This document shows, one piece after another, positions 11,722 through 51,855 of a stretch of DNA of 64,000 nucleotides. The DNA comes from Amycolatopsis nigrescens CSC17Ta-90 (GTDB taxonomy: Bacteria; Actinomycetota; Actinomycetes; Mycobacteriales; Pseudonocardiaceae): NCBI RefSeq assembly GCF_000384315.1, contig NZ_ARVW01000001.1, forward strand, positions 1,311,746 to 1,375,745. The letters run 5' to 3'. How positions within the stretch are numbered: the stretch's first letter is position 1; every line of letters begins with the position of its first letter. The notes under the pieces are model-generated. The model was not told where the DNA came from, made no database searches, and saw nothing but the letters and a program-made list of their open reading frames with translations. Made by a program: the position numbers and the translations under genes.

Positions 11722-11738
11722 CCGCCACCGACCAGGCG

Positions 11739-13802: not shown

Positions 13803-13816
13803 CCCACTCGCGAATA

Positions 13817-13872: not shown

Positions 13873-13880
13873 GTGCGGGG

Positions 13881-15413: not shown

Positions 15414-15551
15414 GACCTTCGCTCCTTAACGCCGGTGTTATCGGGGTTGAGTGTCGCGAAAGTCTTGCCAGGATGCGAGGTTTGTGCCGATCTTGGGAAA
15501 GATTCCTGAACGGCGCGGGATATCCGTCCCCACTGCCCCGGGCGGAATGGC

Positions 15552-16370: not shown

Positions 16371-16547
16371 GACACACTCCTTGCATCGACTTTCTGACAA
16401 GCCCGATCATTCACCGAAACCCGCCACCACCGCACCCCCGCTGTGACGAAATGGTCGCTAAGTCCTAATGCCGGTGGGACCGCTGCCTCATGACTTGAGG
16501 AAGCGGATCCGGAAGTCTTGGCGAGGAAAGCGATGCGGAGGTGAACG

Positions 16548-17021: not shown

Positions 17022-17053
17022 GCACACCACCAACGAGAGAAGGGAAAAGGGCC

Positions 17054-17521: not shown

Positions 17522-17583
17522 CCCCGTTCAGCGCTGGAAAGAACTTCGTAAAAGTCACCGGGAACAAGGACACAGGAGTCGCA

Positions 17584-23192: not shown

Positions 23193-24389
23193 TCACCACT
23201 GAACGGGCAGTTCGTAAAGACCGTAGACGAACATGTCCTCGCGGTAGCGAAGCTTGTCGGCCGGCTGCACCGACCGCAGCGTCGGGAAGGCGGAGAACAG
23301 CGCGCGCAGCACCACCCGCAGCTCGACCCTGGCCAGGCTCATCCCGATGCACTGGTGCACGCCGTAGCCGAAGGTCAGGTGCGCCACCTGCGGCTGGCTG
23401 GTGTCGATCGCGTGCGGGCACTTGTACTGCGTCTCGTCCCGGTTCCCGGAGGCCAGCAGGCAGGTCACCCACTCCCCCTCGGCGATCCGCACCCCGCCGA
23501 TCTCCACGTCCGTGGTGGCCCGCCGAGTCACGCCGAACTGGATGATCGAGTGGATCCGCAGGATCTCCTCGACCAGCTTGTCCGCGCCCTGCGGGGTTTC
23601 CAGCTCCTTGATCAGCGAGGGGTTCTCCAGCAGGTGGGCCACCCCGATGCCGATCGTGCTCGCCGTGGTCTCGTGCCCGGCGAGCAGCAGCAGCATGCCC
23701 ATGCCGACCATGTACTCCCGCGAAACCGGCTCGCCGTCGATCTCGGCCGCGCCGAGGTGGCTGAGCAGATCGTCGACCGGCTTGCGCTTCTTCTGCTCCG
23801 CGATGTCGGTCAGGTAGTCGATCAGCGCGATGGTGGCCTCGTCGACCTGGTCCGGAGTACTCGCCACCGCACTGCGGACATGGGTCTGCTGCTGGAAGAA
23901 CTCCTGATCCGACGCCGGCACGCCGAGCAGCTCGCAGATGATCCTGGACGGCACCGGGAAGGCGAGGGACTCCAGCAGGTCCAGCGGCCCGCCGTGCTCG
24001 CGCATCCCCGCCAGGTACTCCTGGGTGATCTCCTCGATCCGCGGCTCCAGCGCACGCGCCTTGCCCGGCGTCATGTCGCGCAGGATGAGCCGCCGCCACT
24101 TCGTGTGCTCCGGCGGGTCCATCGCGACCAGCGAGCGCGGCATCATCACCGGCTTGCGGCCGATGGCAAGCGAAGGCGGCATGTTGCCGGCCCTGTCGAT
24201 GCTGAACCGGTTGTCCGCGAGCAGCTTCCGCTGAAGGTCGTAGGTGGTTACCAACCACCCTTCCACGCCGTTCGGCCAGACGAACCGGCTGATCGGGGCT
24301 TCCGCGCGTAACCGGTCGTATTCCGGCGGCAGGTCGAACGGATGGACTCGCTCGCGGGGAAACATCGGTAACGAGGAAGGCTGTGCCAC
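23193..24389 (-). CDS. Cytochrome P450 (bacterial class I, CYP105/107-like)
   Basis: 398 residues, complete. I-helix AGHETTAS (237-244), EILR with E275 and R278 for the ExxR motif, heme-binding FGYGVHQCIG with C347. The GHETT sequence keeps the acid/Thr pair for O2 activation. A hydroxylation, phenol coupling or N-oxidation of the polyketide or the aminobenzoate unit is plausible. No dedicated ferredoxin is adjacent; the 3Fe-4S ferredoxin at 2552 is a possible partner. Its promoter region has three 10-bp direct repeats and a motif shared with the DAHP-synthase promoter. Confidence 0.9.
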   Translation of the reverse strand: MAQPSSLPMFPRERVHPFDLPPEYDRLRAEAPISRFVWPNGVEGWLVTTYDLQRKLLADNRFSIDRAGNMPPSLAIGRKPVMMPRSLVAMDPPEHTKWRRLILRDMTPGKARALEPRIEEITQEYLAGMREHGGPLDLLESLAFPVPSRIICELLGVPASDQEFFQQQTHVRSAVASTPDQVDEATIALIDYLTDIAEQKKRKPVDDLLSHLGAAEIDGEPVSREYMVGMGMLLLLAGHETTASTIGIGVAHLLENPSLIKELETPQGADKLVEEILRIHSIIQFGVTRRATTDVEIGGVRIAEGEWVTCLLASGNRDETQYKCPHAIDTSQPQVAHLTFGYGVHQCIGMSLARVELRVVLRALFSAFPTLRSVQPADKLRYREDMFVYGLYELPVQW

Positions 24390-24417
24390 GATGACCTCAT
24401 CTTCTCCGAGCTGTAGC

Positions 24418-24447
24418 GTCGTTCAGCGTCATTCGGCGCCATTCGGC
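24418..24447. promoter_or_regulatory. Three 10-bp tandem repeats upstream of the P450 gene
   Basis: gtcgttcagc, gtcattcggc, gccattcggc: three consecutive 10-mers in helical phase, 29-58 bp upstream of the P450 start codon. The arrangement resembles operator arrays read by SARP-type activators. No SARP gene is in this window. Confidence 0.45.
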
Positions 24448-24478
24448 GAACCCCTCGGCCGTGGCGCCGGGTAAGACT

Positions 24479-24492
24479 CTGGCACAACCGGG
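24479..24492 (-). promoter_or_regulatory. Motif shared with the DAHP-synthase promoter
   Basis: ctggcacaaccggg here and ctggcacaactggg at 36905-36918, both on the same strand relative to the minus-strand gene they precede. Thirteen of 14 positions match. Possible common operator for the P450 and the aminobenzoate operon. Confidence 0.35.
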
Positions 24493-24722
24493 GTCCCAGG
24501 GTCATCGTCGTCCGGTCCCCCCTCGACAGGGACAATCGCCGTGCCAGCCGGGAACCGGGAAATCCCGCCCCGTCCTCGGCAGATTCCCGGGCGGCGGGGA
24601 CGCCTGCCCCACGACGTGGGACGGGGAGAACCAGAATGCTTTGGTCAAACGTATTGGGCTCATTACCTCTTACCCCCACGTAGTGACAAACTCATTGTGC
24701 GACAGAAAGCAGGGCAGAAAGC

Positions 24723-25751
24723 ATGAGCGAGAGTTATGCGCCAGACGCCGCGGACGCCTTCGCGCTCTCGCAGCTGATGTTCCCGACCACCGCTCTGTGC
24801 ATTTCGGTGGCGGCCCAGCATGGGCTGGCCGACGTGCTCGGCGACGGGAAGATGTCCGTCGAAGAGCTCGCCGAGCGCAGCGGGACCAACGTGGTCCAGC
24901 TCGGCAAGGTGCTCCGACTGCTCGTGGAGGAAGGAGTCTTCCGCGAGACGCAACCGGATGTCTTCGAGAACTCCCCGTTGTCCCATCTGCTGCGCCGCGG
25001 TTTCCCCCGCTCGCAGTACTCGATGGCGCGGCTGGTCGGTTCACGCTGGCTGTGGACCGCTTGGGGCCGGCTCGCCGACGGCCTCGCCACCGGCAAACCA
25101 GGCTTCGAGGTCGCCTACGAGAAGACCCTGTGGGCGCACCTGGCCCAGCACCCCGAAGACGGCACCATCTTCAACGGTGCGATGAACGACTTCTCCGAGG
25201 CGCTGAGCGACCAGGTCGCCGCGTCCTACCCGGAGTTCTCCGACAGCGGGGTGATCGCCGACCTCGGTGGCGGCACCGGCACCTACCTCGGCGCGATCCT
25301 GCGCGCGCACCCCGGGGTGAAGCAGGGTGTGCTGGTGGACCTGCCACCGGTGATCGAAGAGGCCCGCGCCAGGCCGGACCTCGAGTCGATGATCGGCTCG
25401 GACCGGCTGCGGCTGGAGGCGGGCGACTTCTTCGAGAAGGTGCCCGGCGGCATCGACACCTATGTGGTCAAGCAGGTCATGCACAGCTGGGACGACGCGA
25501 AGGTGGTGCAGCTGCTCAAGCTGTGCCGGGCCGCGTCGCCGAAGGCCAGGTTCGTCGCGGCCGAGTTCGTCCGCGACGACAAGTCCTCCCGGTTCGTGAA
25601 GAACTTCGACCTGGTCATGACCATCACCATGAACGGCAACGTGCGCACCGAGGCGCAGTACGCCGAGGTATTCCGCGCGGCCGGCTACGAGCTGACCAGG
25701 GTGGTCCCCACCGACACGGCCTTCAGCCTGGTCGAAGCGCGTCCCGTCTGA
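24723..25751 (+). CDS. SAM-dependent O-methyltransferase
   Basis: 342 residues of the plant/actinomycete small-molecule O-methyltransferase family. The N-terminal dimerisation domain (PTTALCISVAAQHGLADVLG) is followed by a Rossmann fold with ADLGGGTGTYLG as the SAM site and a catalytic His in VMHSWDD. It is the type of enzyme that methylates phenolic hydroxyls of aromatic polyketides. It starts a plus-strand operon with PabC (10 bp gap), the VCBS protein and the MFS exporter, which couples methylation with aminobenzoate supply. Confidence 0.85.
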   Translation: MSESYAPDAADAFALSQLMFPTTALCISVAAQHGLADVLGDGKMSVEELAERSGTNVVQLGKVLRLLVEEGVFRETQPDVFENSPLSHLLRRGFPRSQYSMARLVGSRWLWTAWGRLADGLATGKPGFEVAYEKTLWAHLAQHPEDGTIFNGAMNDFSEALSDQVAASYPEFSDSGVIADLGGGTGTYLGAILRAHPGVKQGVLVDLPPVIEEARARPDLESMIGSDRLRLEAGDFFEKVPGGIDTYVVKQVMHSWDDAKVVQLLKLCRAASPKARFVAAEFVRDDKSSRFVKNFDLVMTITMNGNVRTEAQYAEVFRAAGYELTRVVPTDTAFSLVEARPV

Positions 25752-25761
25752 GTCCGAGACC

Positions 25762-26592
25762 GTGAACGACGTATGGGGCTGGCGGCAGGGCCACGGGTTG
25801 CGGCCCGCCGACGCCGGGCCGGCCAGGCTGCTGGTCGCCGACTCCTGGCTGCTGGAGCACGGCCGGATGCGCGGGCTGGAGCCGCACCGGCGCCGGTTCG
25901 CCGCCGGCTGCGCCGACGCCGGCGGCCCCGAACCGTCCGAAGTGGACGATTTCTGGCAGGCCGCGGTGGCCCGACTGCCCAGGGCGGGCACCTGGTTCCC
26001 GAGGGTGGAGCTGGTGGCCGCACCCGGGGGCGCCCAACTGCGCCTGCGGGTGCGGCCGGCGCCGGCCAGGACCGAGCAGGTCGTGGTCTGGGTGCACGGC
26101 GAAGGCGACCCGCGGGCCGTCCCCCGGCGCAAGGGCCCGGACCTGGACCGGCTCGGCGAGCTGCGGCACCGGGCCGTCGAGGCCGGCGCGAACGAGGCGC
26201 TGCTGACCACCGGTTCCGGCTACGTGTTGGAGGCGGCCACGTCCAGCGTGCTGTGGTGGGAGGGCGACCAGCTCTGCCTGCCCGACCCGAGCTGGCGGGT
26301 GCTGCCGAGCGTGACCGTGGCGCTGATCCGGCAGGCCGCCGCCGAACGCGGCATCACCGTGCGCAGCTCCCGGCGCAGGCTGAGCGAACTGGCCGGCCGC
26401 GAAGTCTGGCTGGCCAACGCGCTGCACGGGATCCGGCCGGTGACCGCGTGGGCCGGCAGCGACGTGCCGGCAGGCCCGGCGGTACGAGCCCCGTCGTGGC
26501 GCCGCTGGTGGCAGGAAGCAGCGGTGGCACTGCCAAAAAGACCCAACGGAGAGCGGGAGATATCCCGAATGTCCGAGATCGGGGCCCCCTGA
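25762..26592 (+). CDS. pabC: 4-amino-4-deoxychorismate lyase (PLP fold type IV)
   Basis: Class IV aminotransferase-fold protein of 276 residues. The PLP lysine is K124 in RRKGPDLDRLGELR, and the later block EALLTTGSGYVLEAATSSVLWW (E157) is typical of ADC lyases. A branched-chain aminotransferase would be longer. Together with PabAB (33062-35308) it completes the two steps from chorismate to 4-aminobenzoate. GTG start, 10 bp after the methyltransferase stop, so the genes are co-transcribed. The last 30 residues are variable. Confidence 0.8.
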   Translation: MNDVWGWRQGHGLRPADAGPARLLVADSWLLEHGRMRGLEPHRRRFAAGCADAGGPEPSEVDDFWQAAVARLPRAGTWFPRVELVAAPGGAQLRLRVRPAPARTEQVVVWVHGEGDPRAVPRRKGPDLDRLGELRHRAVEAGANEALLTTGSGYVLEAATSSVLWWEGDQLCLPDPSWRVLPSVTVALIRQAAAERGITVRSSRRRLSELAGREVWLANALHGIRPVTAWAGSDVPAGPAVRAPSWRRWWQEAAVALPKRPNGEREISRMSEIGAP

Positions 26593-26694
26593 CCCTGGGA
26601 CATTCGGGAGGTCATGATCTCTCAGCAGCTTGCCCCTCGAGTCCCCACCGAGGACGAGCCGCCAAGTTCACACAAGAATGCGGAGGGACCGTTG

Positions 26695-27939
26695 GTGAAC
26701 AAACGACAGAAGCTCTGGAAACTGGCCCTACCACTGAGCGTGGTGGCCGCTGCCTCGGTGGTCACCGCCGCGCAAGCCGAAGAAAGCGCGGAGCCGGAGG
26801 CCCTATCTTCGGCCCAGCCGATCGCCAAGCCCGCGCAGATCAGCTTCTCCGCTCCGGTGGAGTACCCGGCCGGCGTCCGCGCCTGGGCCGTCACGTACGC
26901 GGACTTCAACGGCGACGGCAAGGTCGACGTGGCCACCGGCAACGGCGGCAACTCGATCTCCGTCTTCGCCGGCAAGGGTGACGGCACGTTCGGCGAGAAG
27001 GTCGACTACACCGCCCCCAAGCTGCCCTACTTCCTCGCCTTCGACATCGCGTCGGCGGACTTCACCGGCGACCGCAAGGCCGACATCGTGCTCTCCGGCG
27101 GCAACCCGGCCGGCAACGTGCTGCTCTACCCGAACAAGGGCGACGGCAGCTTCGGCGAACCGAAGGTCGTCCCGTTCGGCTTCGGCCCCACCCAGGTGGC
27201 GACCGCGGACCTGAACCGCGACGGCAAGCAGGACCTGATCGCCAGCAACAACTTCGCCGCGAACGTGTCCGTGGCGCTTGGCAAGGGCGACGGCACCTTC
27301 CGCGAGGAGCGGACGTTCGAGGTCGGCCCAGGGCCGCAGGGCCTGACCGTCGGCGACATCAACGGTGACCGCGTGCCGGACCTGATCACGGGTAACTTCG
27401 GACGGGTGAAGGACTCGGTCTCGGTGCTGCTCGGCAAGGGCGACGGCAGCTTCCGCGAGCAGCGGAACTACCCGGCCGGCATGGCGGTGAACGACGTGGT
27501 GACCGGCGACTTCAACCGCGACGGCGTCACCGACATCGCGGCGGGCCAGTTCATCAAGAACAAGGTGTCCGTGCTGCTCGGCAAGCGCCGCGGTGGGTTC
27601 TCCGAGCCCAAGGAGTATTCGACCGGCACCGCGCTGAACGAGATGACCACGGCCGACTTCAACGGCGACGGCGTGCTGGACATCGTCACCACCGTCTCCC
27701 CGGACAGCGGCCGCGACCCCGGTTCGCCGCCGCCGCCGAACGAGAAGGGTGCCGGTGTCGCGCTGCTGCTCGGCAAGGGTGACGGCAGCTTCACCGAGCA
27801 CAGCCAGTTCCTGATGGAGGGCCTGATGGTCTCGGTCCAGCCGGTGGACCTCAACGGCGACAAGCGGGTCGACCTTGCCACCGCGAACCTGACCAAGAAC
27901 TCCATGGTGGTCTGGCTCAACGAGGGTGCGAAGAGTTGA
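26695..27939 (+). CDS. Secreted FG-GAP/VCBS beta-propeller protein
   Basis: GTG start at 26695 with GGAGG 8 nt upstream. The signal peptide (KRQKLWKLALPLSVVAAASVVTAAQA) leads into about seven FG-GAP/VCBS repeats of the form DFNGDGKVDVATGN...VSVLLGKGDGSF, each with an Asp-rich Ca-binding loop of integrin type. It is therefore an exported calcium-binding propeller with no recognisable active site. It lies between pabC and an MFS exporter whose TTG overlaps its stop, so it is embedded in the pathway operon. Product binding or sequestration outside the cell is a guess. Confidence 0.85.
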   Translation: MNKRQKLWKLALPLSVVAAASVVTAAQAEESAEPEALSSAQPIAKPAQISFSAPVEYPAGVRAWAVTYADFNGDGKVDVATGNGGNSISVFAGKGDGTFGEKVDYTAPKLPYFLAFDIASADFTGDRKADIVLSGGNPAGNVLLYPNKGDGSFGEPKVVPFGFGPTQVATADLNRDGKQDLIASNNFAANVSVALGKGDGTFREERTFEVGPGPQGLTVGDINGDRVPDLITGNFGRVKDSVSVLLGKGDGSFREQRNYPAGMAVNDVVTGDFNRDGVTDIAAGQFIKNKVSVLLGKRRGGFSEPKEYSTGTALNEMTTADFNGDGVLDIVTTVSPDSGRDPGSPPPPNEKGAGVALLLGKGDGSFTEHSQFLMEGLMVSVQPVDLNGDKRVDLATANLTKNSMVVWLNEGAKS

Positions 27940-29138
27940 CCAAGCCCGAGGTGCGGCCGGACGGCGCGGTGGCCAGCACCGCGCCGTTCGGTCGCACGGT
28001 GCTGGTGATGACGATCAGCGGGCTGCTGGTGGTCGGCCAGATGTACCTGGTGCTGCCGCTGTTCTCCGCGATGGCGGCGGACTGGCAGACCACGGCCTCC
28101 GCGGTGACCTGGACGACCACGGCCTTCGGCCTTGCCTACGCGGGCGGGTTCCTGCTCACCGGGCCGCTGTCGGACCGGCTGGGCAGGCGCCGGGTGGTGG
28201 TCACCGGGCTGAGCGTGCTCGCGGTCGCGACGGTCGTCGCGGCCTTCGCCCCTTCCCTGCCGGTGGCCATCGCCTGCCGGATCGCACAGGGCATCGGTGC
28301 CGCCGGGTTCTCCCCCGCGGCACTGGCCTACCTGACCGAGCGGATCGCGCCAGCCCGCCGCTCGGTGGCGCTGACCTGCCTGGTCACCGCGATGGTGGCG
28401 TCCACCGTGACCGGGCAACTGGTGGCGCAGGCGCTGCTGCCGATCGGCGGCTGGCGCGGCGTGTTCGTGATCAACGCCTGCCTGGTCGCGGCGCTGGCGG
28501 CGACGCTGCGGGTGGTGATGCTGCCCGAGCAGGCCACCGGTGCCCGCGGCAGCCTCGGCAGCTTCTTCGGTGCCATGGCGAAACTGGTCACCCGGCCGGT
28601 GCTGCTGCTGATCGACCTCGGCGCGTTGACCGTGCTGGGCAGTTTCGTGGCCGTCTACACCGCGCTGCAACTGCTCGGCCCGGACGAGCTCGGCCGGCCG
28701 GACGTGCTGCTCGGCCTGCGGGCCAGCGCACTGCCGGCACTGGTGGCGATCCCGTTCCTGGCGCCGGTTCTGGCGAAGCTGCGGGCCACCTTCCGTGCCG
28801 CACTGGCGCTGGTGATCGGCGCCGCGGCGGTGCTCGGGCTGGCCTTCGCCGGCGGTTCCTCGCTGCTCACCATCGGTGCGCTGCTGTTCCTCTTCGTCGC
28901 CGCCATCGCGGCGGTGTCCCCCGGGCTGACCGAGCTGACCGGCATGCTCTCCGGGCCGGCCCGAGGCGCCGGGGTCGCGCTGTACACCTTTTCGCTGATG
29001 GCCGGCGCCAGCCTGGGACCGCAGCTCGTCTCACTGCTCGGCGGGAGCGGCTTCACCACCGTGCTGGTGGCGATCTGCGTGCTGCAGCTGGCCGGTGCCG
29101 CCCTGCTCCTCACCGCCGAACGCTTCCGCCCCCGCTGA
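27936..29138 (+). CDS. MFS exporter, DHA1-type (12 TM)
   Basis: 400 residues with 12 predicted helices. Motif A is GPLSDRLGRRRVVVTG after helix 2, and RIAQGIGAAGFSPAALAYLTERI matches the drug-H+ antiporter pattern. The TTG start at 27936 overlaps the TGA of the VCBS gene (TTGA). It is the last gene of the methyltransferase-pabC-VCBS-exporter operon and is followed directly by a terminator. It probably exports the product or an aromatic intermediate. Confidence 0.8.
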   Translation: MTKPEVRPDGAVASTAPFGRTVLVMTISGLLVVGQMYLVLPLFSAMAADWQTTASAVTWTTTAFGLAYAGGFLLTGPLSDRLGRRRVVVTGLSVLAVATVVAAFAPSLPVAIACRIAQGIGAAGFSPAALAYLTERIAPARRSVALTCLVTAMVASTVTGQLVAQALLPIGGWRGVFVINACLVAALAATLRVVMLPEQATGARGSLGSFFGAMAKLVTRPVLLLIDLGALTVLGSFVAVYTALQLLGPDELGRPDVLLGLRASALPALVAIPFLAPVLAKLRATFRAALALVIGAAAVLGLAFAGGSSLLTIGALLFLFVAAIAAVSPGLTELTGMLSGPARGAGVALYTFSLMAGASLGPQLVSLLGGSGFTTVLVAICVLQLAGAALLLTAERFRPR

Positions 29139-29155
29139 CCGTCTCCGTGTGTCCA

Positions 29156-29189
29156 CCCAAGGGCAAAAAGTCGGCTATTTGCCCTTGGG
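29156..29189 (+). terminator. Hairpin terminator of the exporter operon
   Basis: Perfect 12-bp stem (29156-29167, 29178-29189) with a 10-nt loop. Its core (gggcaaa...tttgccc around cggctattt) is shared with the hairpin at 13817-13872. Confidence 0.7.
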
Positions 29190-29191
29190 CG

Positions 29192-29250
29192 GATGCAGCG
29201 AAGGCCACCTTGCCTGCGTTCAACGCAGCGAAGGTGGCCTTCGCTGCATC
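29192..29250. terminator. Hairpin repeat, family AAGGCCACCTT
   Basis: Perfect 20-bp inverted repeat (29192-29211, 29231-29250) with an inner ctgcg/cgcag stem. Same family as 18767-18823 and 54996-55052. Confidence 0.75.
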
Positions 29251-29260
29251 GCCAACGCAG

Positions 29261-29305
29261 TGAAGGCCACCTTCGCTGCATGGGTGAGCAGGAAGGTGGC
29301 CTTCA
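29261..29305 (-). terminator. Hairpin after the AhpD-like gene
   Basis: 13-bp inverted repeat (29261-29273, 29293-29305) of the same AAGGCCACCTT core. It lies just downstream of the minus-strand stop at 29322. Confidence 0.6.
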
Positions 29306-29321
29306 GGGGCACTGAGGGGAA

Positions 29322-29804
29322 TCAGCCGACGGCGGCGGGGGCCTTGGCCTTGTAGCCGCCGACCGGGCGGCGCTGGGTGATGCCGAGCCGGTTCCACGCG
29401 TTGATGGCGATGATCGCGGTGACGATCCGGCCGAGGGTGGCCTCGTCGAAGTGCTTGGCGGCCTCGTCCCACGCCTCGTCCGAGACGCCCTCGTCGGCGA
29501 TCAGCGTGATCTCCTCGGTCAGCGCCAGCACGGCGCGTTCCTCGTCGGTGTAGAACGGGGTGTCCCGCCACGCGTTGAGCGCGTAGATCCGCTGCTCGGT
29601 CTCGCCGGCCGCGCGCGCATCCTTGGTGTGCATGTCCAGGCAGAAGGCGCACTGGTTGAGCTGCGAGGCACGAATCTTGATCAGCTCGAGCAGGGTGTGG
29701 TCCAGACCGGAGTCGGCCACCAGCGCGTCGAGCGCGAACAGCGCGTTCTTCGCCTCCGGCCAGGCCTTGCCGAGGTCAATCCGAGTCTTCAAACCGAACT
29801 CCAA
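29322..29804 (-). CDS. AhpD-like/carboxymuconolactone decarboxylase-family protein
   Basis: 160 residues with the alkylhydroperoxidase-type CxxC...H motif CAFCLDMHTKDAR (C52, C55, H59). This signature gives peroxidase/disulphide activity in AhpD. The TTG start has GGGGGAG 9 nt upstream. It lies 113 bp downstream of the aminobenzoate/ligase operon on the same strand and may be read through from it. A redox housekeeping or detoxification role during quinone production is possible; no specific step can be assigned. Confidence 0.75.
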   Translation of the reverse strand: MEFGLKTRIDLGKAWPEAKNALFALDALVADSGLDHTLLELIKIRASQLNQCAFCLDMHTKDARAAGETEQRIYALNAWRDTPFYTDEERAVLALTEEITLIADEGVSDEAWDEAAKHFDEATLGRIVTAIIAINAWNRLGITQRRPVGGYKAKAPAAVG

Positions 29805-29917
29805 TCGGTGTTGCTCCCCCAGCCGCCGAAAGGCGGGGAAAAGGTCGGGGAAAGGTCAGGGAAAGGTCTCTGCTAGTTGTGTTCTCCTGCATGGCTTTAG
29901 GCCACCAGGCTAGTCCG

Positions 29918-31489
29918 TCAAGACGGCTGGCCGCTGGTCTTCTGCAGCAGCCGGGTCAGTTCCAGCCGCTGGACCTTCCAGGTGGAGGTCCGCGGCACCT
30001 CGTCGAACGGCAGCTGCACCGGGTCTGCCATCGTCGGCAGGTCCGCGGTGGCCAGCCGCCAGCGGTCGAGGTCGAGCGGACGCTCGCCCCTGGTGCACAC
30101 CACCGGCACCGGCTCGCCGGAGCGGCCGGCCACGATGGCGATCTCCCGCAGCTCGTCCAGCCGGGACATCAGCATGTCCTCGGCCTTGAGGTTGCTGTCC
30201 ATCGAGTCGATCTGGTCCACCTCGCGGTCCATCAGGTAGACCTCGCCCCAGCGGCCGCGGAAGCCCATGTCGCCCATCTTCCACCACTTGCCGTTGAGCA
30301 CCTCCTCGTAGCGCTTGTGCTCGCCGAGGTAGGTCAAGATCCGGCTGCGGATCTTCACCTCCAGGTGGCCCGGCTCGCCGCGGCCGACCTTCTTGCCGTC
30401 GGCACCGGTGACCCGCAGCTTCACGAACCAGGGCACCGCCACCCCGACGCACCTGGCGTCGGTCTTGTCCGCCGAGCGCCGGGTGAACCAGCGCGCACAC
30501 ACCGGGCCGGTCTCGGACTGCCCGTAGAGCTGCACGAAGACCGGCGACCGCCGCCGCGACGAGGAGAGCATCCGCTGGATGGTGCGCGGATGCATCGCGT
30601 CGAAGGTGGCACCGAAGACCTTCACGCTGGACAGCGGCGCCTGCGGCGCGTCGGCCAGCTCCTCCCAGTCGATGTAGGTGTTCGGCTGGGTCTCGATGAA
30701 ACCGGGACGGGTGCGCGCGAACAGCGGCCCGATCCGCCGCGGGTCGGTGTCCACCGCGATCACCAGCGGGTTGCCGTAGTCGAGGAAAACCCGCAGCGCG
30801 TTGTAGAACCGGGAGTGCACGAAGGTCATGCAGAGCGCGACCGTCTCCTTCCGGATCGGCCAGGCCATGATCTTCTGCGGGCGCAGCCGGTGCAGCAGCG
30901 AGTCACCGCAGTGCACCGCCAGCTTGGGCACCCCGGTGGTGCCCGAGCTGTGCGTGATCAGCGAGGGCTGGCGCGGGTGCAGCTGCACCGCGTCCCGCGC
31001 GGGCGCGCCGGCGAACTCGGACAGCGGCGTGGTGTTGGGCAGCTCCCGGCCGGCGGAGAGCAGCACCCGGCGCACCTCCTCGGCCGGTGCCGTGCCGTCG
31101 AAGGACGCGTCGATCTTGTTCGCGTCGGTGATCAGCCACGGCTTCTCCATCCGCCGCAGCAGCTCGGTGGCCAGCGCCGGGCTCAGCGCCGGCGAGAGCA
31201 GCGCGGGCACCGCGCCGATCCTGGCCGTGGCGCAGGCCAGCAGCGCGATGTCGAAGTTGTTCGTCTTGTAGATGGCCACCCGTTCGGTCGGCCGCACCCC
31301 GGCGGCCCACAGCCGCGCGGACAGCTCAGCGACCCGGTCGGCCAGCTCGCCGACCGTGGTGTCCACGCCCGCGTCCGGCGCCAGCTGCAACGGCTGGTCG
31401 AGGGTGACCTTGACCGCGCCATGCCGCTGAGCCGCGTGCTGGAACATCAGGCCGATCTGGAAGGCCAGATCGGCGGAATCGTTCGACAT
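29918..31489 (-). CDS. Class I adenylate-forming enzyme (acyl-CoA ligase-like)
   Basis: 523 residues. The phosphate-binding loop THSSGTTGVPK (180-189) and the acceptor-site region VQLYGQSETGP are normal, and the catalytic lysine is kept (K505). However, the terminal motif reads PRTSTWKVQR with Trp where this family almost always has Gly. The ATG at 31487-31489 with AAGGGG is used; the frame runs on upstream but is non-coding in character. It sits 2 bp from the benzoate-CoA-ligase-type gene. Possible roles are activation of a second acid, loading to a carrier protein, or amide formation with aminobenzoate. Confidence 0.8.
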   Translation of the reverse strand: MSNDSADLAFQIGLMFQHAAQRHGAVKVTLDQPLQLAPDAGVDTTVGELADRVAELSARLWAAGVRPTERVAIYKTNNFDIALLACATARIGAVPALLSPALSPALATELLRRMEKPWLITDANKIDASFDGTAPAEEVRRVLLSAGRELPNTTPLSEFAGAPARDAVQLHPRQPSLITHSSGTTGVPKLAVHCGDSLLHRLRPQKIMAWPIRKETVALCMTFVHSRFYNALRVFLDYGNPLVIAVDTDPRRIGPLFARTRPGFIETQPNTYIDWEELADAPQAPLSSVKVFGATFDAMHPRTIQRMLSSSRRRSPVFVQLYGQSETGPVCARWFTRRSADKTDARCVGVAVPWFVKLRVTGADGKKVGRGEPGHLEVKIRSRILTYLGEHKRYEEVLNGKWWKMGDMGFRGRWGEVYLMDREVDQIDSMDSNLKAEDMLMSRLDELREIAIVAGRSGEPVPVVCTRGERPLDLDRWRLATADLPTMADPVQLPFDEVPRTSTWKVQRLELTRLLQKTSGQPS

Positions 31490-31491
31490 GA

Positions 31492-33072
31492 CTACCCCTT
31501 GTTCGGCAGTTGGAGTGAATTCGGTCCGGCGGCGTTTTCGGTGACGTTCACTGTGGTGTTCTCGACCGTCTGCCGGAGCACGAACCGGCGCAGCTTGCCG
31601 GTGGAGGTGCGCGGCAGGGAGTCGACCAGCTGCACCGAACGCGGCACCTTGTACGGCGCCAGCCTGCTCCTGGCCAGCGCGATCAGCTCGGCCTCCAGCT
31701 CCGACTCGAGCTCGGGCGGCGACGGCGCCGCCACCACGAACGCGCGCAGCTTGGTGGCACCCCGGTAGTCGGCGACCGCGGCCACCGCCACCTCGCGCAC
31801 CCCGCGGTGGGTGCGGAGCACGTCCTCCACCTCCATCGGCGACATGGTGATACCGCCGACCATCTCCAGGTCGTCGGTCCTGGCCACATGGGTGAAGGTG
31901 CCGTCGGCGTGCCGGACCGCGCGGTCGCGGGTGTACAGCCAGCCGTCCACCAGCACGGCTTCGGTGGCGTCGGGGCGGTTCAGGTATTCGCGCATCATCG
32001 CCGCGCCGCGCACCCACATGTCGCCTTCGGTCTCGTCACCGATCGGGCGACGGTTCTCGTCCCGCAGCTCGACCTCGAACCCGGGCACCGCCCGGCCGAT
32101 GGTGCCGGGCACGTTGTGGCCGAAGGTGTTCGCGGTGGCCGCGCAGCCGATCTCGGTGGCGCCGAGCTGGTTCAGCACCGGGGCGCCGAGGAACTCGGCC
32201 GAGCGGTCGGTCATGTCCTTGGTGAACCGCTCACCGCCGGAGACCGCGCCGCGCACCGAGCCGAACAGCGCGGGGTCGGCCTCGTCCGCCATCCGGCCGA
32301 ACCACGAAGGCACCGCGTAGAGCCGGGAAACCTGGTAGCGGGCCACCAGTTCGCCGATCATGCCCGGGGCGGGGCGGTCCGAGATGAGCACCGCCGAGGA
32401 GCCGGAGAACAGCGGGAACACCATGGAATTGCAGAACCCGTAGGTGAAGTACAGCTTGGACACCGAAAGCGTCACGTCGTCCGGCCGCACGTCGATCGCC
32501 CTGCCCACGGTCTCGTGGTAGGCGAACGGATTCCGTTGTGGATGGACGACACCCTTCGGCCGCCCGGTGGTGCCCGAGGTGTAGTGCACGTACAACGGCA
32601 CGCCGGCCGGCGCCGGGGCGGCGGCACCGGCGACCGCGGCCTCGGCCAGCAGCCGCCCCACGTCCAGGAAGCGGCCGGCGTCGAACCTGCCCGCCAGCTC
32701 CTCGGTGGTGACCACCAGCTTCACGTCGCAGTCGGCGGCCATGAACAGGTGGTCCTGCGCGGTCAGGTCGGGGTTGACCGGGACGACCGTGCAGCCGGCC
32801 CGCGCGGTGGCCAGGAAGGCCACCACCCAGGCGATGCTGTCCGGTGCCACGATCATCACCCGGTCGCCGGCCCGCACCCCGTGCCGGTGCAGCACGGTGA
32901 CCGCCCGCGCCGCGGTGTCGTACAGGCGGCCGTAGGTCCACGGCCCTTCTTCGGTGAAGAACGCGGTGCGCCGCAGCCAGCCGTTGCGCACGGCCATCGC
33001 TTCCAGCTGGGCGGCGTAGTTCGGCACCGAAATGTCCAAAGTGGACGTCTTGAGGGCGCGGTCAAGCGACAA
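31492..33072 (-). CDS. Benzoate/aminobenzoate-CoA ligase-type enzyme
   Basis: 526 residues. ATP loop HYTSGTTGRPK (163-173), core motif LYFTYGFCNSMVFPLFSGSSAVL as in benzoate-CoA ligases, and a canonical C-terminal PRTSTGKLRR with catalytic K493. It fits activation of an aryl acid; 4-aminobenzoate is the obvious candidate because the gene overlaps the 3' end of pabAB by 11 bp. In enterocin biosynthesis a ligase of this type (EncN) primes a type II PKS with benzoate. TTG start supported by GGAGGG. Substrate specificity is inferred from context. Confidence 0.85.
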   Translation of the reverse strand: MSLDRALKTSTLDISVPNYAAQLEAMAVRNGWLRRTAFFTEEGPWTYGRLYDTAARAVTVLHRHGVRAGDRVMIVAPDSIAWVVAFLATARAGCTVVPVNPDLTAQDHLFMAADCDVKLVVTTEELAGRFDAGRFLDVGRLLAEAAVAGAAAPAPAGVPLYVHYTSGTTGRPKGVVHPQRNPFAYHETVGRAIDVRPDDVTLSVSKLYFTYGFCNSMVFPLFSGSSAVLISDRPAPGMIGELVARYQVSRLYAVPSWFGRMADEADPALFGSVRGAVSGGERFTKDMTDRSAEFLGAPVLNQLGATEIGCAATANTFGHNVPGTIGRAVPGFEVELRDENRRPIGDETEGDMWVRGAAMMREYLNRPDATEAVLVDGWLYTRDRAVRHADGTFTHVARTDDLEMVGGITMSPMEVEDVLRTHRGVREVAVAAVADYRGATKLRAFVVAAPSPPELESELEAELIALARSRLAPYKVPRSVQLVDSLPRTSTGKLRRFVLRQTVENTTVNVTENAAGPNSLQLPNKG

Positions 33073-35308
33073 GGTGACTGCCCTCCTCGCTCGGCACGCC
33101 GACCTCAGCAGCGGAGTCTTCGGAGTCCAGTTCGGACGGTCCGCCGATCAGCGGGTGGGCGCGCAGGGTGGCGGTGGCCTTGAGCAGCATCTCGTCGTAC
33201 TCCTCGACCGCGTCCGAGTCGAGCACGATCGCGCCGCCCGCCCCGACGTGCCACTGGCCGTCGGTGAGCACCGCGGTCCTGATCACGATGTTCAGGTCCG
33301 CCGTGCCGTCGCAGCCCAAGAAGCCGATCGTGCCGGAGTAGACGCCCCTGGCCATGGTCTCCAGCGAGTCGATGATCTCCATCGTGCGCAGCTTGGGCGC
33401 GCCGGTCATCGAGCCGCCGGGGAAGCAGGCCCGCACGCAGTCGATCACGCTGGTGTCCTGGCGCAGCGTGCCGCGCACGGTGGAGACCAGTTGGTGCACC
33501 GTCGCGTAGGTCTCGGTGGCCATCAGCCTCGGCACGTGCACGCTGGAGACCTCGCACACCTGGCCGAGGTCGTTGCGCAGCAGGTCGACGATCATCAGGT
33601 TTTCCGCGTAGGTCTTGGCGCTGGTGGTCAGCTCCGCGCGCAGCGCCTCGTCCTCTTCCGGGGTGCTGCCCCGGCGGGCGGTGCCCTTGATCGGCTTGGT
33701 CTCCACCACCCGGTCGCGGTCGATCCGCAGGAAGCGCTCCGGCGACGAGCAGGCCACGTGCATCTCGTCGAACCGCAGGTAGGCCCCATACGGCGCGGGG
33801 TTGCAGCGCCGCAGCTCCCGGTAGAACTGGAAACCGTCCCCGGTGGCCGGGATCTGCGCCGCATTGGTCAGGCAGATCTCGTAGCTCTCGCCGGCCAGCA
33901 GCTTGTCCTTGCAAGCGTCCACATCGGACAGATACTGCTCGCGGTCGCGGACCAGCCACGGCTCGACCACGGCCGGGTCCACCGCGGCCTGGCGGCGTCG
34001 CCCGTTGTTGCCGTTGCCGTTTCCGTCGCCGGGGGCCGCGCAGTCGACCAGCGTGCCGATCACCGAACGCAGCCACTCCGAGGAGGTACGGAAGCCCTCC
34101 GGGGTGTCGTCGTCCAGCGCCAGGATGTAGGTGCGCCGCTTCTCGTGGTCGACCGTCACCGCCCGGTCCGCGAAGATCCACTGGGCGTCCGGGTTCGCCG
34201 ACACGTGCTTGTTGGCCGCGCCGCAGTCCGCCTTGAGCTCGTAGCCGAAGTACCCGACGTACCCGCAGGGGTGGTCGAAGGACAGCCGGTAGGGCGTGAC
34301 CACGTCGCGCCGCTCCAGCTCGGTCTCCAGGTAGTCGAAGATGGTGCCGGGCACCTGGTGGGTCACGCCGCTGCTCGGCGTGACCATCACCTTGCCGTCG
34401 CCGACCTGGTAGCTCACCGACTCGCCCAGCGGGCCGGAGCCGTCGCCGAGGTGGGAGAACCTGGCGAGGCCTGGTTCCACGTGCGCACTGTCCAGCCAGA
34501 ACGCGTTCGGCGAACCGGCGAAGATCGTGGAGAAGGCCGACTCGGTGTCCACCGCGAACTCGAGCATGCGCACCCGGAGGTGGTACTGCACCGGCGCCGG
34601 CTTGTCCGGCGTCCTGCCGTTGCGGGCGCTGTGCGCGGGGTGCCCGTTTCCGTGGTGGCCGTTGACCCGCGCACCGTTGCCACGCACCCTGACCGTGCTG
34701 CCGGCCGGGGCGGAGCTGCCGTCGCGCTGCCGCTCGGCGGTGATGTCCCGGAAGTTCGCCAGCAGCTCACGGCCGAACTCGCTGGCCACCGACTCCGGGT
34801 GGAACTGCAGCCCCCACAGCGGCCGCTCCCGGTGCCGCAGCCCCATGATCACGCCGTCCTCGGCCCACGCGGTGGCGGCCAGGCTGTACGGCAGCGGCTC
34901 GATGGTGCGCAGCGAGTGGTAGCGGACCGCGGTGAACTCGGTGGGCAGACCGGCGAACAGGTCCTCGCCGTCGTGCGTGACCTTGGTCAGGTGCCCGTGC
35001 CGCGCCTGCGGCGCCGGGCCGACCTCGCCCTGCTCGACGGCCGCGATCCCCTGGTGCCCGAGACACACGCCGAGCAGCGGGATCTCGGTCCGGCGCAGCA
35101 CGTCGGTGCAGATGCCGAAGTCGTGCGGCCGGGCGGGATGACCGGGTCCCGGCGAGATCACGATGTTGTCGAAGGCGCCGAGGTCGAGCCGCTCCCCGTC
35201 GGGGAGGTCGTTCCGGACGACCGTCGGCTCCACACCGTTGACCTCGGCTATCAGCTGGAAGAGGTTGTAGGTGTAGGAGTCGTAGTTGTCGATCAGCAAT
35301 GTCCGCAT
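33062..35308 (-). CDS. pabAB: Fused aminodeoxychorismate synthase PabAB
   Basis: 748 residues. The N-terminal glutamine amidotransferase (about 1-190) has C82 in GVCLGHQG and the H170/E172 pair in FHPES. An Ala/Gly/Asn linker leads to the chorismate-binding domain (about 230-725). The diagnostic motif is PIKGTARRG (K541): the lysine marks aminodeoxychorismate synthases, where anthranilate synthases have PIAGT. The domain order (amidotransferase first) matches PabAB of candicidin and chloramphenicol-type pathways. It makes 4-amino-4-deoxychorismate, which PabC (25762) aromatises. It is 15 bp downstream of the DAHP synthase gene in the same operon. Confidence 0.9.
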   Translation of the reverse strand: MRTLLIDNYDSYTYNLFQLIAEVNGVEPTVVRNDLPDGERLDLGAFDNIVISPGPGHPARPHDFGICTDVLRRTEIPLLGVCLGHQGIAAVEQGEVGPAPQARHGHLTKVTHDGEDLFAGLPTEFTAVRYHSLRTIEPLPYSLAATAWAEDGVIMGLRHRERPLWGLQFHPESVASEFGRELLANFRDITAERQRDGSSAPAGSTVRVRGNGARVNGHHGNGHPAHSARNGRTPDKPAPVQYHLRVRMLEFAVDTESAFSTIFAGSPNAFWLDSAHVEPGLARFSHLGDGSGPLGESVSYQVGDGKVMVTPSSGVTHQVPGTIFDYLETELERRDVVTPYRLSFDHPCGYVGYFGYELKADCGAANKHVSANPDAQWIFADRAVTVDHEKRRTYILALDDDTPEGFRTSSEWLRSVIGTLVDCAAPGDGNGNGNNGRRRQAAVDPAVVEPWLVRDREQYLSDVDACKDKLLAGESYEICLTNAAQIPATGDGFQFYRELRRCNPAPYGAYLRFDEMHVACSSPERFLRIDRDRVVETKPIKGTARRGSTPEEDEALRAELTTSAKTYAENLMIVDLLRNDLGQVCEVSSVHVPRLMATETYATVHQLVSTVRGTLRQDTSVIDCVRACFPGGSMTGAPKLRTMEIIDSLETMARGVYSGTIGFLGCDGTADLNIVIRTAVLTDGQWHVGAGGAIVLDSDAVEEYDEMLLKATATLRAHPLIGGPSELDSEDSAAEVGVPSEEGSHLVA

Positions 35309-35323
35309 TGGGCTTTCGTCCCC

Positions 35324-36745
35324 CTAGTTGTTCGCGGCCAGCAGGCGGGCGGCATCCGACAGGGTGGCCGCGGCGGAAGTGAGCAGGTCCGCGATCTCCT
35401 GCGCGAGCGAAAGCGCTTGCACGTCGTTGAGCCGCGGATCGCACAGTGACCGGTAGGCGGTGGGCAGTTCGGAGACGATCGGACCGCCTCCGCCGACGCA
35501 TTCGGTCACGTCGTCGCCGGCCACCTCCAGGTGCACCCCGCCCGGCCACTCGGAAAGAGCCACCAGCACGTCGAAGAACCCCCGCAGTTCGTCGACGATG
35601 TCGTCGTAGTAGCGCGTCTTGAGCCCGGTCGAGGTCTTCACCGTGTTGCCGTGCATCGGATCGCACATCCAGATCACCGGATGCCCCGCCGCGCGCACCG
35701 CGCGGACCAGCGCCGGCAGCCGGTCCCGCACCATCGCGGCGCCCTGCCTGGCGATCAGGGTCAGCCGGCCGGGAGTCCGGTCCGGGTCGAGGCGCGCGCA
35801 GATCCGGACCAGCTCGGCCGGGTCGGTGTCCGGCCCGACCTTGCAGGCGACCGGATTGGCCACCCCGGCGAGGAACCGCACGTGCGCGCCGTCCGGCTGG
35901 TTGGTGCGGGCCCCGATCCACGGCAGGTGGGTGCTGCTCAGGTACCACCGCCCGGTCTCGGGATCCCGCCGGGTCAGCGGCTCCTCGTAGTCGAGCACCA
36001 GCGCCTCATGGCTGGACCACAGTCCATTGTGGAGCCAGGAGCCGTCGCGCTGCCTGGTCTGGCCGTAGGAGTGCGCCCCGGTGGAAAGCGAACCGGGCGG
36101 GGTGGACCACCACCGCGCCGGGCGTACCCCGCCCGGTTCGCCGTCCCCGGCGGTGACCGGGCCGGAGAGGTTGTGCAGTTCCTCGAACACCCGGTACGCG
36201 GTCTGGTATGCGTCCAGCAGCCGCGGGGCGTGCGGGCGGCGGGCCGTTTCGGTCGGCTCCGCCCCGTTCACGATCAGCCCGCGGAAGGACGGCAGGCGCC
36301 TGCCTTCGACCAGTTCGGTCGGCTGGGACCGCGGCTTGCCGAACTGGCCGGCCAGCCGTCCCGCCGTGACCACCGGGAAGGCGGTGCTCTTGCTGATCAG
36401 CGTCGCCATCTGGCCGAGCAGCCGGTGCTTGTTGCGCGCGCCGACCACGGCCGCCTTGCCGAACGGCTCGGCGCAGTCCCCAGCCTGCAGCACGAACGCC
36501 TCCGCGGCCTGCACCCGGCTCAACGTCGCGAGCAGCGCGCGTACGTCAGCGGGCGTACTCAGCGCGGGCAGCGAGAACAGCGCTTCACGAACCCAGCTGA
36601 TACCAGGAGTGGTCCAGTCCGGCTGCTGTTTGGCGGGCAGCGAATGCCAGATATCGGGATTCCACGGCGCCGGGACGCCCTCGGTCGTCTCCCGGTCGGA
36701 CGTGCCCGCCACCCGTTGGGAAGGCGACAGCCTTGACCAGTTCAT
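35324..36745 (-). CDS. Class II (plant-type) DAHP synthase
   Basis: 473 residues: NPDIWHSLPAKQQPDW, AGDCAEPF with C91 for the metal site, KTRYYDD and MCDPMHGNT (phosphate and metal ligands) are all in place. It condenses PEP and erythrose 4-phosphate, the first step of the shikimate pathway. Extra copies of this enzyme are often found in gene clusters that draw heavily on chorismate. As the first gene of the DAHP synthase-PabAB-ligase-ligase operon it should boost flux to 4-aminobenzoate. ATG at 36743-36745 chosen; the frame extends further without conserved sequence. Confidence 0.9.
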   Translation of the reverse strand: MNWSRLSPSQRVAGTSDRETTEGVPAPWNPDIWHSLPAKQQPDWTTPGISWVREALFSLPALSTPADVRALLATLSRVQAAEAFVLQAGDCAEPFGKAAVVGARNKHRLLGQMATLISKSTAFPVVTAGRLAGQFGKPRSQPTELVEGRRLPSFRGLIVNGAEPTETARRPHAPRLLDAYQTAYRVFEELHNLSGPVTAGDGEPGGVRPARWWSTPPGSLSTGAHSYGQTRQRDGSWLHNGLWSSHEALVLDYEEPLTRRDPETGRWYLSSTHLPWIGARTNQPDGAHVRFLAGVANPVACKVGPDTDPAELVRICARLDPDRTPGRLTLIARQGAAMVRDRLPALVRAVRAAGHPVIWMCDPMHGNTVKTSTGLKTRYYDDIVDELRGFFDVLVALSEWPGGVHLEVAGDDVTECVGGGGPIVSELPTAYRSLCDPRLNDVQALSLAQEIADLLTSAAATLSDAARLLAANN

Positions 36746-36904
36746 CTTCACCACGTTTCGAGTCAGGCGCCGAACCCGGCGCTCACCCAGTTGCGCCCCA
36801 AACCCCAGCCAATTCGAACTCCGCACACCCGGCTCGGGCCTACCGCGTCCTTTGGCGTCTTACAGCCTCGCTCCAGGTCATCCCGCGGTCTTGAGCAAAC
36901 GGTC

Positions 36905-45176: not shown

Positions 45177-45288
45177 ATTTGCCTCAATCGAGTGAGTAAT
45201 ACATGTTTCCCGGCCGGATAGTCGTGTTTTCGACTTTCCTGGAAAAGTATCCGCAGCGGCCCATCCCAACGTCGTGAGCCTCGCGTCC

Positions 45289-51813: not shown

Positions 51814-51855
51814 GCACCGGCCCCACCCCGCGTCACCCGGACCGAAAGATTGCTG

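What the first reader, a model, noticed from the sequence alone, without database searches (positions are those of the whole stretch)
23193..36745. Complete 4-aminobenzoate branch plus two acyl-activating enzymes inside a type II PKS cluster
Seen: class II DAHP synthase, fused PabAB with PIKGT lysine, a benzoate-CoA-ligase-type enzyme and a second adenylating enzyme in one minus-strand operon, with PabC in an operon with an O-methyltransferase and an exporter. The minimal PKS sits 22 kb away on the same stretch. Known: enterocin uses benzoyl-CoA-type priming without KSIII, and aurachin uses anthranilate; 4-aminobenzoate starters are well known from type I systems such as candicidin. Inference: PABA (or an N/C-modified form) either primes this type II PKS or is attached as an aminobenzoyl group. 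I know of no PABA-primed type II PKS.
Basis: partly seen in the sequence, partly recalled or inferred. Interest (0 to 1): 0.85.

Follow-up and report, generated by a model that had tools for sequence, protein, structure and literature searches.

The report
PABA diazotisation cassette beside type II PKS
The genes make 4-aminobenzoic acid and probably turn its amine into a reactive diazonium group beside genes for an aromatic polyketide, so the acid is more likely a nitrogen-linked attachment than the starting block of the polyketide.

Summary
In detail: DAHP synthase, fused PabAB (PIKGT), PabC, two adenylating enzymes and a type II PKS lie in one region; no KSIII is near. The interpretation changes. 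The second adenylating enzyme (29918-31489) is not a plain acyl-CoA ligase: it falls in a clade with AvaA6-type diazotases and Tri17 (UFBoot 100). The FAD protein 42890-44836 is a CreE-type L-aspartate N-hydroxylase with its published site residues conserved; five relatives also have a CreD-like lyase in the cassette. PabAB, both ligases and a PHBH-type hydroxylase occur together in 70 of 80 named loci, with no type II KSalpha or CLF in any flank. Ten of 13 genomes with a close SchA-type PKS block lack the cassette there; four of these ten show KSalpha, 78-86% identical. So PABA is unlikely to prime the PKS. I propose a diazotised (hydroxy-)PABA that azo/hydrazone-couples to a conventionally primed aromatic polyketide. 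Substrate, coupling and product are inferred; CreD is missing here and CreE from Amycolatopsis taiwanensis. Arylhydrazone polyketides (murayaquinone C, katorazone) are a known product kind; the passages I read name no genes.

The parts
23193..24389 (-). Cytochrome P450, conserved next to the cassette in G027 (80%)
   Evidence: Pfam p450
24723..25751 (+). O-methyltransferase (Methyltransf_2)
   Evidence: 70-73% in G027 and G209
25762..26592 (+). PabC-like aminodeoxychorismate lyase (Aminotran_4)
   Evidence: NCBIfam models below cut-off
26614..27939 (+). FG-GAP repeat protein
   Evidence: conserved in G027 and G209
27936..29138 (+). MFS exporter
   Evidence: conserved in G027 and G209
29322..29804 (-). 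CMD/AhpD-family protein of the cassette
   Evidence: Pfam CMD; in 10 of 10 family genomes examined and 68 of 80 named loci
29918..31489 (-). Lig2: diazotase-clade ATP-dependent adenylating enzyme (HSSGTTG P-loop); ATG 2 nt after the Lig1 stop
31492..33072 (-). Lig1: benzoate-CoA ligase/FadD22-like carboxylate-activating enzyme
33062..35308 (-). PabAB fused aminodeoxychorismate synthase, PIKGT
35324..36826 (-). Class II DAHP synthase
37131..38051 (+). ABC transporter ATPase (by eye from the translation; no family scan run)
   Evidence: translation; conserved in G027 and G209
38051..38887 (+). ABC permease-like membrane protein (by eye; no family scan run)
39445..40701 (+). FAD_binding_3 (PHBH-type) hydroxylase of the cassette; proposed ortho-hydroxylase of PABA
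   Evidence: in 73 of 80 named loci
42890..44836 (-). CreE-type L-aspartate N-hydroxylase (nitrosuccinate synthase)
   Evidence: PDB 8cp2/8cp5 1.9e-197; site residues conserved
44838..45269 (-). TcmI-family polyketide cyclase (Cyclase_polyket)
49226..50110 (+). 3-hydroxyisobutyrate dehydrogenase-like (models below cut-off), PKS side
   Evidence: present in cassette-free PKS relatives
51232..51813 (+). Cupin, PKS side
51850..52842 (+). Amidohydrolase, PKS side
52839..53600 (+). SDR ketoreductase, PKS side
53632..54030 (+). SchA/CurD-like protein
   Evidence: 17 of 297 family genomes
54065..54934 (+). LLM oxidoreductase, PKS side
56324..56794 (-). Anthrone-oxygenase-like protein (below Pfam cut-off)
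56796..57167 (-). ABM-family cyclase/monooxygenase
57180..58439 (-). [12 protein letters not shown] signature
58436..59714 (-). KSalpha (start taken at MKELSNRR)
60207..60674 (-). TcmN/WhiE-type aromatase-cyclase (TcmN named in the PDB hits; WhiE recalled)
   Evidence: PDB 3tl1, 3tvr, 2rer
60676..60939 (-). ACP, the only free ACP seen in the type II part
60941..63979 (-). Acetyl-CoA carboxylase subunits (AccC, BCCP, AccAD; the AccAD frame runs on to 64594 outside the window)
   Evidence: BCCP by eye
11526..18693 (.). Further conserved part of the cluster: MFS, DUF1707, berberine-bridge-type oxidase 13881-15413-, LLM, SnoaL, HAD-like (below cut-off), RCC1-like
   Evidence: the BBE homologue also sits beside the cassette in G012, G167, G244, G251

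Best explanation
One merged gene cluster (window about 11.5-64 kb plus about 8 kb beyond the right end) with two modules. Module 1 makes and diazotises a 4-aminobenzoate: DAHP synthase, PabAB and PabC give PABA. The PHBH-type hydroxylase probably adds a hydroxyl ortho to the amine, Lig1 activates the carboxylate, the CreE enzyme oxidises aspartate to nitrosuccinate, a lyase encoded elsewhere releases nitrite, and Lig2 uses ATP and nitrite to convert the arylamine to a diazonium or o-quinone diazide. Module 2 is a conventionally primed type II PKS. The electrophilic diazo-benzoate then probably couples to the electron-rich polyketide and gives an azo- or hydrazone-linked aryl polyketide. Shown: gene content, families, conserved cassettes, shared clusters, clade of Lig2, conserved CreE site residues. 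Inferred: substrate of Lig2, order of steps, coupling and product.
For: Lig2 groups with AvaA6-type diazotases and Tri17 (PDB 8TF7/9BQ0, so identified in PMC11705231 passages) at UFBoot 100, apart from Lig1, 14 ligases of the same genome and 4-chlorobenzoate ligase. P-loop H[ST]SGTTG in 20 of 20 Lig2 rows, 30 of 30 AvaA6-type rows and Tri17, against YTSG[ST]TG in 6 of 6 Lig1 and 15 of 15 outgroup rows. Its closest same-genome relatives include a ligase behind a CreE and a CreD-like gene at 67.6-73.7 kb of this genome. CreE: 8cp2 at 1.9e-197, eleven of eleven site residues checked are identical. CreE lies within 10 kb of Lig1 in at least 7 of the 21 family genomes (own included) with Lig1 at 48% identity or more; five of those 7 also have a CreD-like lyase in the cassette. 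PabAB+Lig1+Lig2+hydroxylase together in 70 of 80 named loci. Merged cluster conserved in G027 and, over two contigs, G209. PKS block without cassette in 10 of 13 genomes with close SchA; KSalpha, seen in 4 of the 10, is 78-86% identical against 87-88% in cassette-bearing G209 and G027.
Against: No CreD-like gene in this cluster nor in the G027 stretches; A. taiwanensis (G209) has the cassette but no CreE in the genome at 1e-80. In the 80 named loci CreE is within the flank in only 2, both without PabAB, and the CreD-like lyase in 0. The 7 linked genomes are not independent: four are of one genus (g8), and in three other g8 genomes no link was seen (G238 and G193 on other contigs; G170 on very small contigs), so the chance figures (5e-13, or 1e-7 with a generous rate, both with rates that I chose) overstate the case. 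Lig2 scores only 88 bits against the AvaA6 model (cut-off 975). The clade also holds 9xb8, deposited as a FadD fatty-acid-CoA ligase; CreM itself was not available. The H-x-S-G-T-T-G DNA pattern alone is no rarer than its backward control (4 against 3 places); what speaks is that all four places fall in AMP-binding genes. The role of Lig1 is unexplained if only the amine is modified. PABA as the diazotised amine is inferred from linkage; L070-L072 carry Lig2 without PabAB in the flank. No coupling enzyme is identified. The structure prediction of Lig2 never finished.
Confidence: 0.55

Rival explanations
1. PABA (activated by Lig1) primes the type II PKS.
For: Benzoate-type ligase, no KSIII within 1.8 Mb; the CLF has S/T/A where the actinorhodin CLF has Gln (recalled), so decarboxylative priming is uncertain; aminobenzoate-primed highly reducing type II PKSs exist (PMC10777205 passages). 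For 6 of the 10 cassette-free PKS blocks no KSalpha was in the stretch fetched.
Against: The KSalpha/CLF/ACP/aromatase set occurs without PABA genes in G238, G114, G029 and G207, with KSalpha up to 86% identical and the same CLF signature. Cassette loci lack KSalpha, CLF and ACP in the flanks of 80 of 80 named loci at the thresholds used (type I PKSs not tested). There is no second starter ACP as in ava/cma. The aromatase is TcmN-type, a kind known from acetate-primed systems (recalled).
Confidence: 0.08
2. Two independent gene clusters that happen to be neighbours: a PABA-diazo cluster and a type II PKS cluster with separate products.
For: Both modules occur apart in other genomes. The block has been rearranged between genomes.
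Against: The combination is kept in G027 from another genus with genes of both modules interleaved (the TcmI-family cyclase at 44838 next to CreE at 42890; P450, OMT and BBE at both sides), and in A. taiwanensis over two contigs.
Confidence: 0.22
3. The PABA unit is attached through its carboxyl as an ordinary aminobenzoyl ester or amide by Lig1, and Lig2 is an amide synthetase rather than a diazotase.
For: Lig1 is FadD22/benzoate-CoA-ligase-like. Lig2 has no Pfam AMP-binding_C match.
Against: Position of Lig2 in the diazotase clade and linkage of the cassette to CreE and CreD-like genes in part of the genomes; no acyltransferase was recognised among the cassette genes scanned.
Confidence: 0.12

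Closest known systems
Cremeomycin (CreE/CreD/CreM), tasikamide (Aha1/Aha2/Aha11) and penzonemycin (pzm) diazo clusters
   Same: Aspartate-derived nitrite, CreM-type ATP-dependent arylamine diazotase, amino-benzoate ring; pzm has an acyl-CoA ligase gene (pzm17) next to the CreM homologue (pzm18); tasikamide couples two pathways by Japp-Klingemann chemistry (passages of PMC11705231 and PMC9323291).
   Different: There the arylamine is 3-amino-2-hydroxy-4-methoxybenzoate, an alkyl 5-hydroxyanthranilate or a 3-hydroxyanthranilate, not PABA; partners are none, an NRPS peptide or a small ketone, not a type II polyketide.
[quoted passage not shown]
   Same: Aminobenzoate, nitrite pathway and diazotase; ava/cma also hold a type II PKS (PMC10777205 passages). 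For spinamycin the passages say only that its cluster resembles ava (PMC11705231).
   Different: In ava/cma the PKS is highly reducing and is primed by the aminobenzoate through a ligase and a dedicated starter ACP; the diazotases are of the AvaA6 group. Here the PKS is an aromatic one whose relatives exist without the aminobenzoate genes.
Murayaquinone C and katorazone (arylhydrazone aromatic polyketides)
   Same: Aromatic polyketide-type skeleton carrying a hydrazinyl-benzoate unit, the product kind predicted here (PMC13266690 passages).
   Different: From Streptomyces; scaffold and position of the carboxyl may differ (katorazone is put down to a 2-hydrazinylbenzoate); the passages give no gene cluster.
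Candicidin/aureothin PABA starters
   Same: PabAB/PabC and a ligase supply PABA for a polyketide (recalled).
   Different: Type I PKS with PABA as starter; no diazotase or nitrosuccinate synthase (recalled).

Membership tests
CreE-type L-aspartate N-hydroxylase | Homology over full length to the solved enzyme | tested here: met
   8cp2 E 1.9e-197, query 3-622 of 648
CreE-type L-aspartate N-hydroxylase | Asn62 and the Arg/Asn cluster binding aspartate (PMC10404684 section 8) | tested here: met
   R13, N62, R266, R276, R409, R412, N413, R416, R577 (also V571, R593) identical; R597 lies outside the alignment
CreE-type L-aspartate N-hydroxylase | Paired nitrosuccinate lyase CreD in the cluster | tested here: not met
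   No CreD-like hit in the window or G027 stretches, no PF00206 hit near (6 in the genome); a CreD-like gene exists at 67.6-69.0 kb of the genome; 5 relatives have one in the cassette. No reference CreD sequence was at hand: 'CreD-like' means PF00206 lyase beside CreE
CreM/AvaA6/Tri17-type nitrite-dependent diazotase | Phylogenetic position inside the diazotase clade | tested here: met
   UFBoot 100 for Lig2 + three same-genome relatives + AvaA6-type + Tri17 + 9xb8 (53 sequences); FastTree 1.0 without the PDB rows (66 sequences)
CreM/AvaA6/Tri17-type nitrite-dependent diazotase | P-loop H[ST]SGTTG instead of YTSG[ST]TG | tested here: met
   seen here on these sequences, not a published rule that I know of
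CreM/AvaA6/Tri17-type nitrite-dependent diazotase | Curated AvaA6 model NF058622 | tested here: not met
   88.3 bits against cut-off 975; own genome no match at 1e-60: not an AvaA6 orthologue; CreM itself was not available to test
CreM/AvaA6/Tri17-type nitrite-dependent diazotase | ATP- and nitrite-dependent diazotisation of an arylamine | not testable with these tools
   needs assay
PABA synthase PabAB | PIKGT lysine and pabB model over its cut-off | tested here: met
PABA-primed type II PKS | Starter-loading parts (starter ACP, KSIII or acyltransferase) tied to PABA genes | tested here: not met
   no KSIII near, one free ACP in the type II part, cassette and PKS separable
PABA-primed type II PKS | PABA incorporated at the chain start | not testable with these tools
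   needs labelled feeding

The most novel reading that the evidence does not exclude
This is the first gene cluster for an azo/hydrazone-linked type II polyketide: a dedicated 4-aminobenzoate is made, hydroxylated and diazotised in situ and coupled to the aromatic polyketide. The same PABA-diazotisation cassette, which I did not find described in the texts I searched, is widespread in actinomycetes as a portable aryl-diazonium supplier for different partners.
Probability: 0.4. Interest if true: 0.85.

Novelty: new variant of a known kind. Interest (0 to 1): 0.68.

Why it matters
If true, it gives a genetic handle on arylhydrazone aromatic polyketides, whose origin is only proposed in the review passages I read (PMC13266690). 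It adds PABA to the amines diazotised in nature and gives a function to a cassette found in 70 of the 80 named loci examined. It also makes a tempting lead, the PABA-primed aromatic PKS, unlikely, and shows that one of the 'two acyl-activating enzymes' should be assayed with nitrite.

Tried and rejected
PABA as starter: rejected as the main reading because PKS and cassette are separable. Amidohydrolase at 51850 as a cassette enzyme: rejected, it follows the PKS (in 8 of the 10 cassette-free relatives, not in the cassette-only genomes). Type I PKS right of the cluster (w77451-84215): not part of the block shared with G027; other type I PKSs lie near some relatives at 33-36% identity, left open. 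Azoxymycin as a PABA-primed type II precedent: abstract and passages of PMC6783550 name neither PABA nor a PKS class, left open. Full-text searches for a PABA-primed type II PKS or a PABA diazo cassette: (1 paper; 1; 0; 4 hold, 3 listed; 37 hold, 25 listed; 4; 9; 2; 59 hold, 20 listed), and for DUF3050 (7); I judged most papers by the listing and opened 11 (abstracts, passages, and section 8 of PMC10404684; none read whole). The library lacks most subscription papers.

Limits of the counts. The KSalpha tree is unusable (an upstream out-of-frame stretch cut the rows of G027, G114 and G029); it was replaced by the identities. In one search, 16 of 30 outgroup loci were dropped because no open frame under 1200 aa with the motif was found, 16 of 30 AvaA6-type rows were thinned out, and PDB 8ztz, also near Lig2, was not put in. 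CreE positions are a truncated list, so 7 of 21 is a lower bound. Of 133 Lig2 relatives found in named genomes 80 were kept, and 27 of these have short flanks. Stretches are up to 20 kb each side, less for G087 and G148. The counts use identity thresholds that I set (for example KSalpha 50%, CLF 40%).
Full report
Observation. PabAB passes the pabB model's cut-off (TIGR00553, 350.9 against 328.4 bits) and carries PIKGT. DAHP synthase, PabAB, Lig1 and Lig2 run head to tail on the minus strand; Lig1's stop lies 2 nt before Lig2's ATG. KSalpha, CLF, ACP and a TcmN-type aromatase are at 57-61 kb. Past 64 kb lie regulators, a pyruvate-dehydrogenase-E1-like alpha/beta pair, a flavoprotein and then a type I PKS. 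No KSIII lies within 1.8 Mb (7 PF08545 hits in the genome).

One cluster. In G027, another genus of the family, homologues of most genes from window 11.5 to 72.3 kb lie together at 45-86% identity, inverted and partly reordered. In A. taiwanensis (G209) the cassette ends one 63 kb contig and the PKS half starts another. Genes of both halves are interleaved, for example the TcmI-family cyclase 44838-45269 beside the CreE gene. So the two halves occur together in three of the 297 genomes sampled.

Two modules. PKS: SchA/CurD-type proteins at 66% identity or more occur in 13 of 297 genomes, own included (17 at E 1e-20). In the 10 other than G000, G027 and G209, no PabAB, PabC or CMD homologue at 1e-10 and no Lig2 homologue above 30% lies in the stretches fetched; of these 10 genomes only G238 has a Lig1 at 1e-80 at all, on another contig. 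KSalpha itself was in the stretch in 4 of the 10. It is 86.0 and 85.9% identical to the window's in G238 and G114, and 80.2 and 78.1% in G029 and G207, against 87.8 and 86.9% in cassette-bearing G027 and G209. All seven CLFs examined have the same VSE[STA]AGGLD signature. Cassette: Lig2 relatives were found at 133 places in named genomes, 80 kept. Within up to 10 kb, PabAB is in 72, Lig1 in 76, the PHBH-type hydroxylase in 73, PabC in 72, CMD in 68, and PabAB+Lig1+Lig2+hydroxylase in 70 of 80; KSalpha, CLF, ACP, aromatase and SchA in 0 of 80 at my thresholds (53 of the 80 have full flanks; type I PKSs not tested). In the family, the ten best non-self genomes all have PabAB, Lig2, CMD and the hydroxylase beside Lig1, and 9 of 10 PabC. 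A mere starter-supply role fits this poorly.

What the cassette does. Lig2 was the key. Its best solved relatives by profile are 8tf7/9bq0, which a review identifies as Tri17, an N-nitrosylase proposed to activate nitrite by adenylation and able to make diazo compounds from anilines (PMC11705231 passages); the next is 9xb8, deposited as a FadD fatty-acid-CoA ligase. Its P-loop HSSGTTG is kept in 20 of 20 Lig2 rows; AvaA6-type rows have HSSGTTG in 26 and HTSGTTG in 4 of 30 (15 of the 16 over the model's cut-off have ISHSSGTTG); 6 of 6 Lig1 and 15 of 15 outgroup rows have YTSG[ST]TG. In the whole genome the H-x-S-G-T-T-G DNA pattern occurs at 4 places (backward control 3), and all four fall in AMP-binding genes, among the lower-scoring of 86 PF00501 matches. 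Trees put Lig2, its three same-genome relatives, AvaA6-type enzymes, Tri17 and 9xb8 in one clade (UFBoot 100) apart from Lig1 and the other ligases. One of those relatives (50% identity) lies behind a CreE homologue and a CreD-like lyase at 67.6-73.7 kb of this genome.

Nitrite supply. The FAD protein 42890-44836 is 1.9e-197 to 8cp2, the aspartate N-hydroxylase that makes nitrosuccinate (PMC10404684, abstract, passages, section 8); eleven of eleven site residues checked are identical. Of the 21 family genomes with Lig1 at 48% identity or more, CreE is within 10 kb of Lig1 in at least 7 (G000, G027, G007, G140, G156, G163, G294), and in five of these (not G000 and G027) a CreD-like gene is next to it. 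Four of the 7 are of one genus, so they are not independent, and the chance figures rest on rates that I chose. The window cluster and G027 lack CreD; A. taiwanensis lacks CreE; in the 80 named loci CreE is near only twice, both times without PabAB, and the CreD-like lyase never. There a DUF3050 haem-oxygenase-like protein is near in 36 of 80; a DUF3050 protein, MgoB, is in the mgo operon for mangotoxin (PMC3298696 passage). So nitrite would often have to come from elsewhere, and this is the weakest part of the case.

Mechanism proposed. PABA (PabAB, PabC); ortho-hydroxylation (39445-40701), which fits the review's remark that known diazotases other than SpiA7 act on substrates with an ortho or para hydroxyl; nitrite from aspartate; diazotisation by Lig2; Lig1 activates the carboxyl, perhaps so that ring chemistry takes place on a thioester; coupling of the diazonium to the nucleophilic polyketide, spontaneous as in tasikamides (Japp-Klingemann) or enzymatic. 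Arylhydrazone aromatic polyketides exist: murayaquinone C and katorazone, each with a hydrazinyl-benzoate unit (PMC13266690 passages). Substrate, order, coupling and product are inference.

Verdict. Observation confirmed; priming interpretation disfavoured (0.08). A PABA diazotisation module joined to an aromatic type II PKS is the best reading (0.55 for the whole chain; higher for the identity of Lig2 and CreE alone). New variant of known kinds: diazo cassettes and type II PKSs are known; the PABA version and this combination I did not find in print (searches listed in Tried and rejected).

Noticed in passing
genome G000:C1:67601-73744 (L291:7602-13745): A second nitrosuccinate locus: CreD-like lyase, CreE homologue, an unassigned frame and a Lig2-type ligase (50% to Lig2), no hit to the PABA genes in the 20 kb fetched; probably another diazo compound of this strain.
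   Followed up: partly
genome G000:C1:1656931-1658781 (L292:9827-11833): A further CreE homologue, 64-67% identical to the window's, with no hit to the CreD-like lyase in the 20 kb fetched.
   Followed up: partly
genome G000:C1:1379476-1381503 (L010:4477-6504): Pyruvate-dehydrogenase-E1-like alpha/beta pair, conserved with the PKS block in cassette-free relatives (66-78%); may supply an unusual starter or two-carbon unit, since the CLF lacks the usual Gln (recalled).
   Followed up: no
L104:4420-5241 (-) and 35 other named loci: DUF3050 haem-oxygenase-like protein near the cassette in 36 of 80 loci; candidate N-oxygenase or nitrite source in Streptomyces.
   Followed up: no
window 13881-15413: Berberine-bridge-type flavoprotein, nearest NCBIfam model bagremycin/ferroverdin BagG/FevA2 (153 bits, cut-off 850); homologue beside the cassette in G012, G167, G244, G251.
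   Followed up: partly
L070, L071, L072: Lig2 at 63-65% without PabAB within 10 kb; L070 and L072 have CreE, and L072 a hydroxylase, an O-methyltransferase and a Rrf2 regulator, a make-up like cremeomycin (recalled) or penzonemycin clusters.
   Followed up: partly
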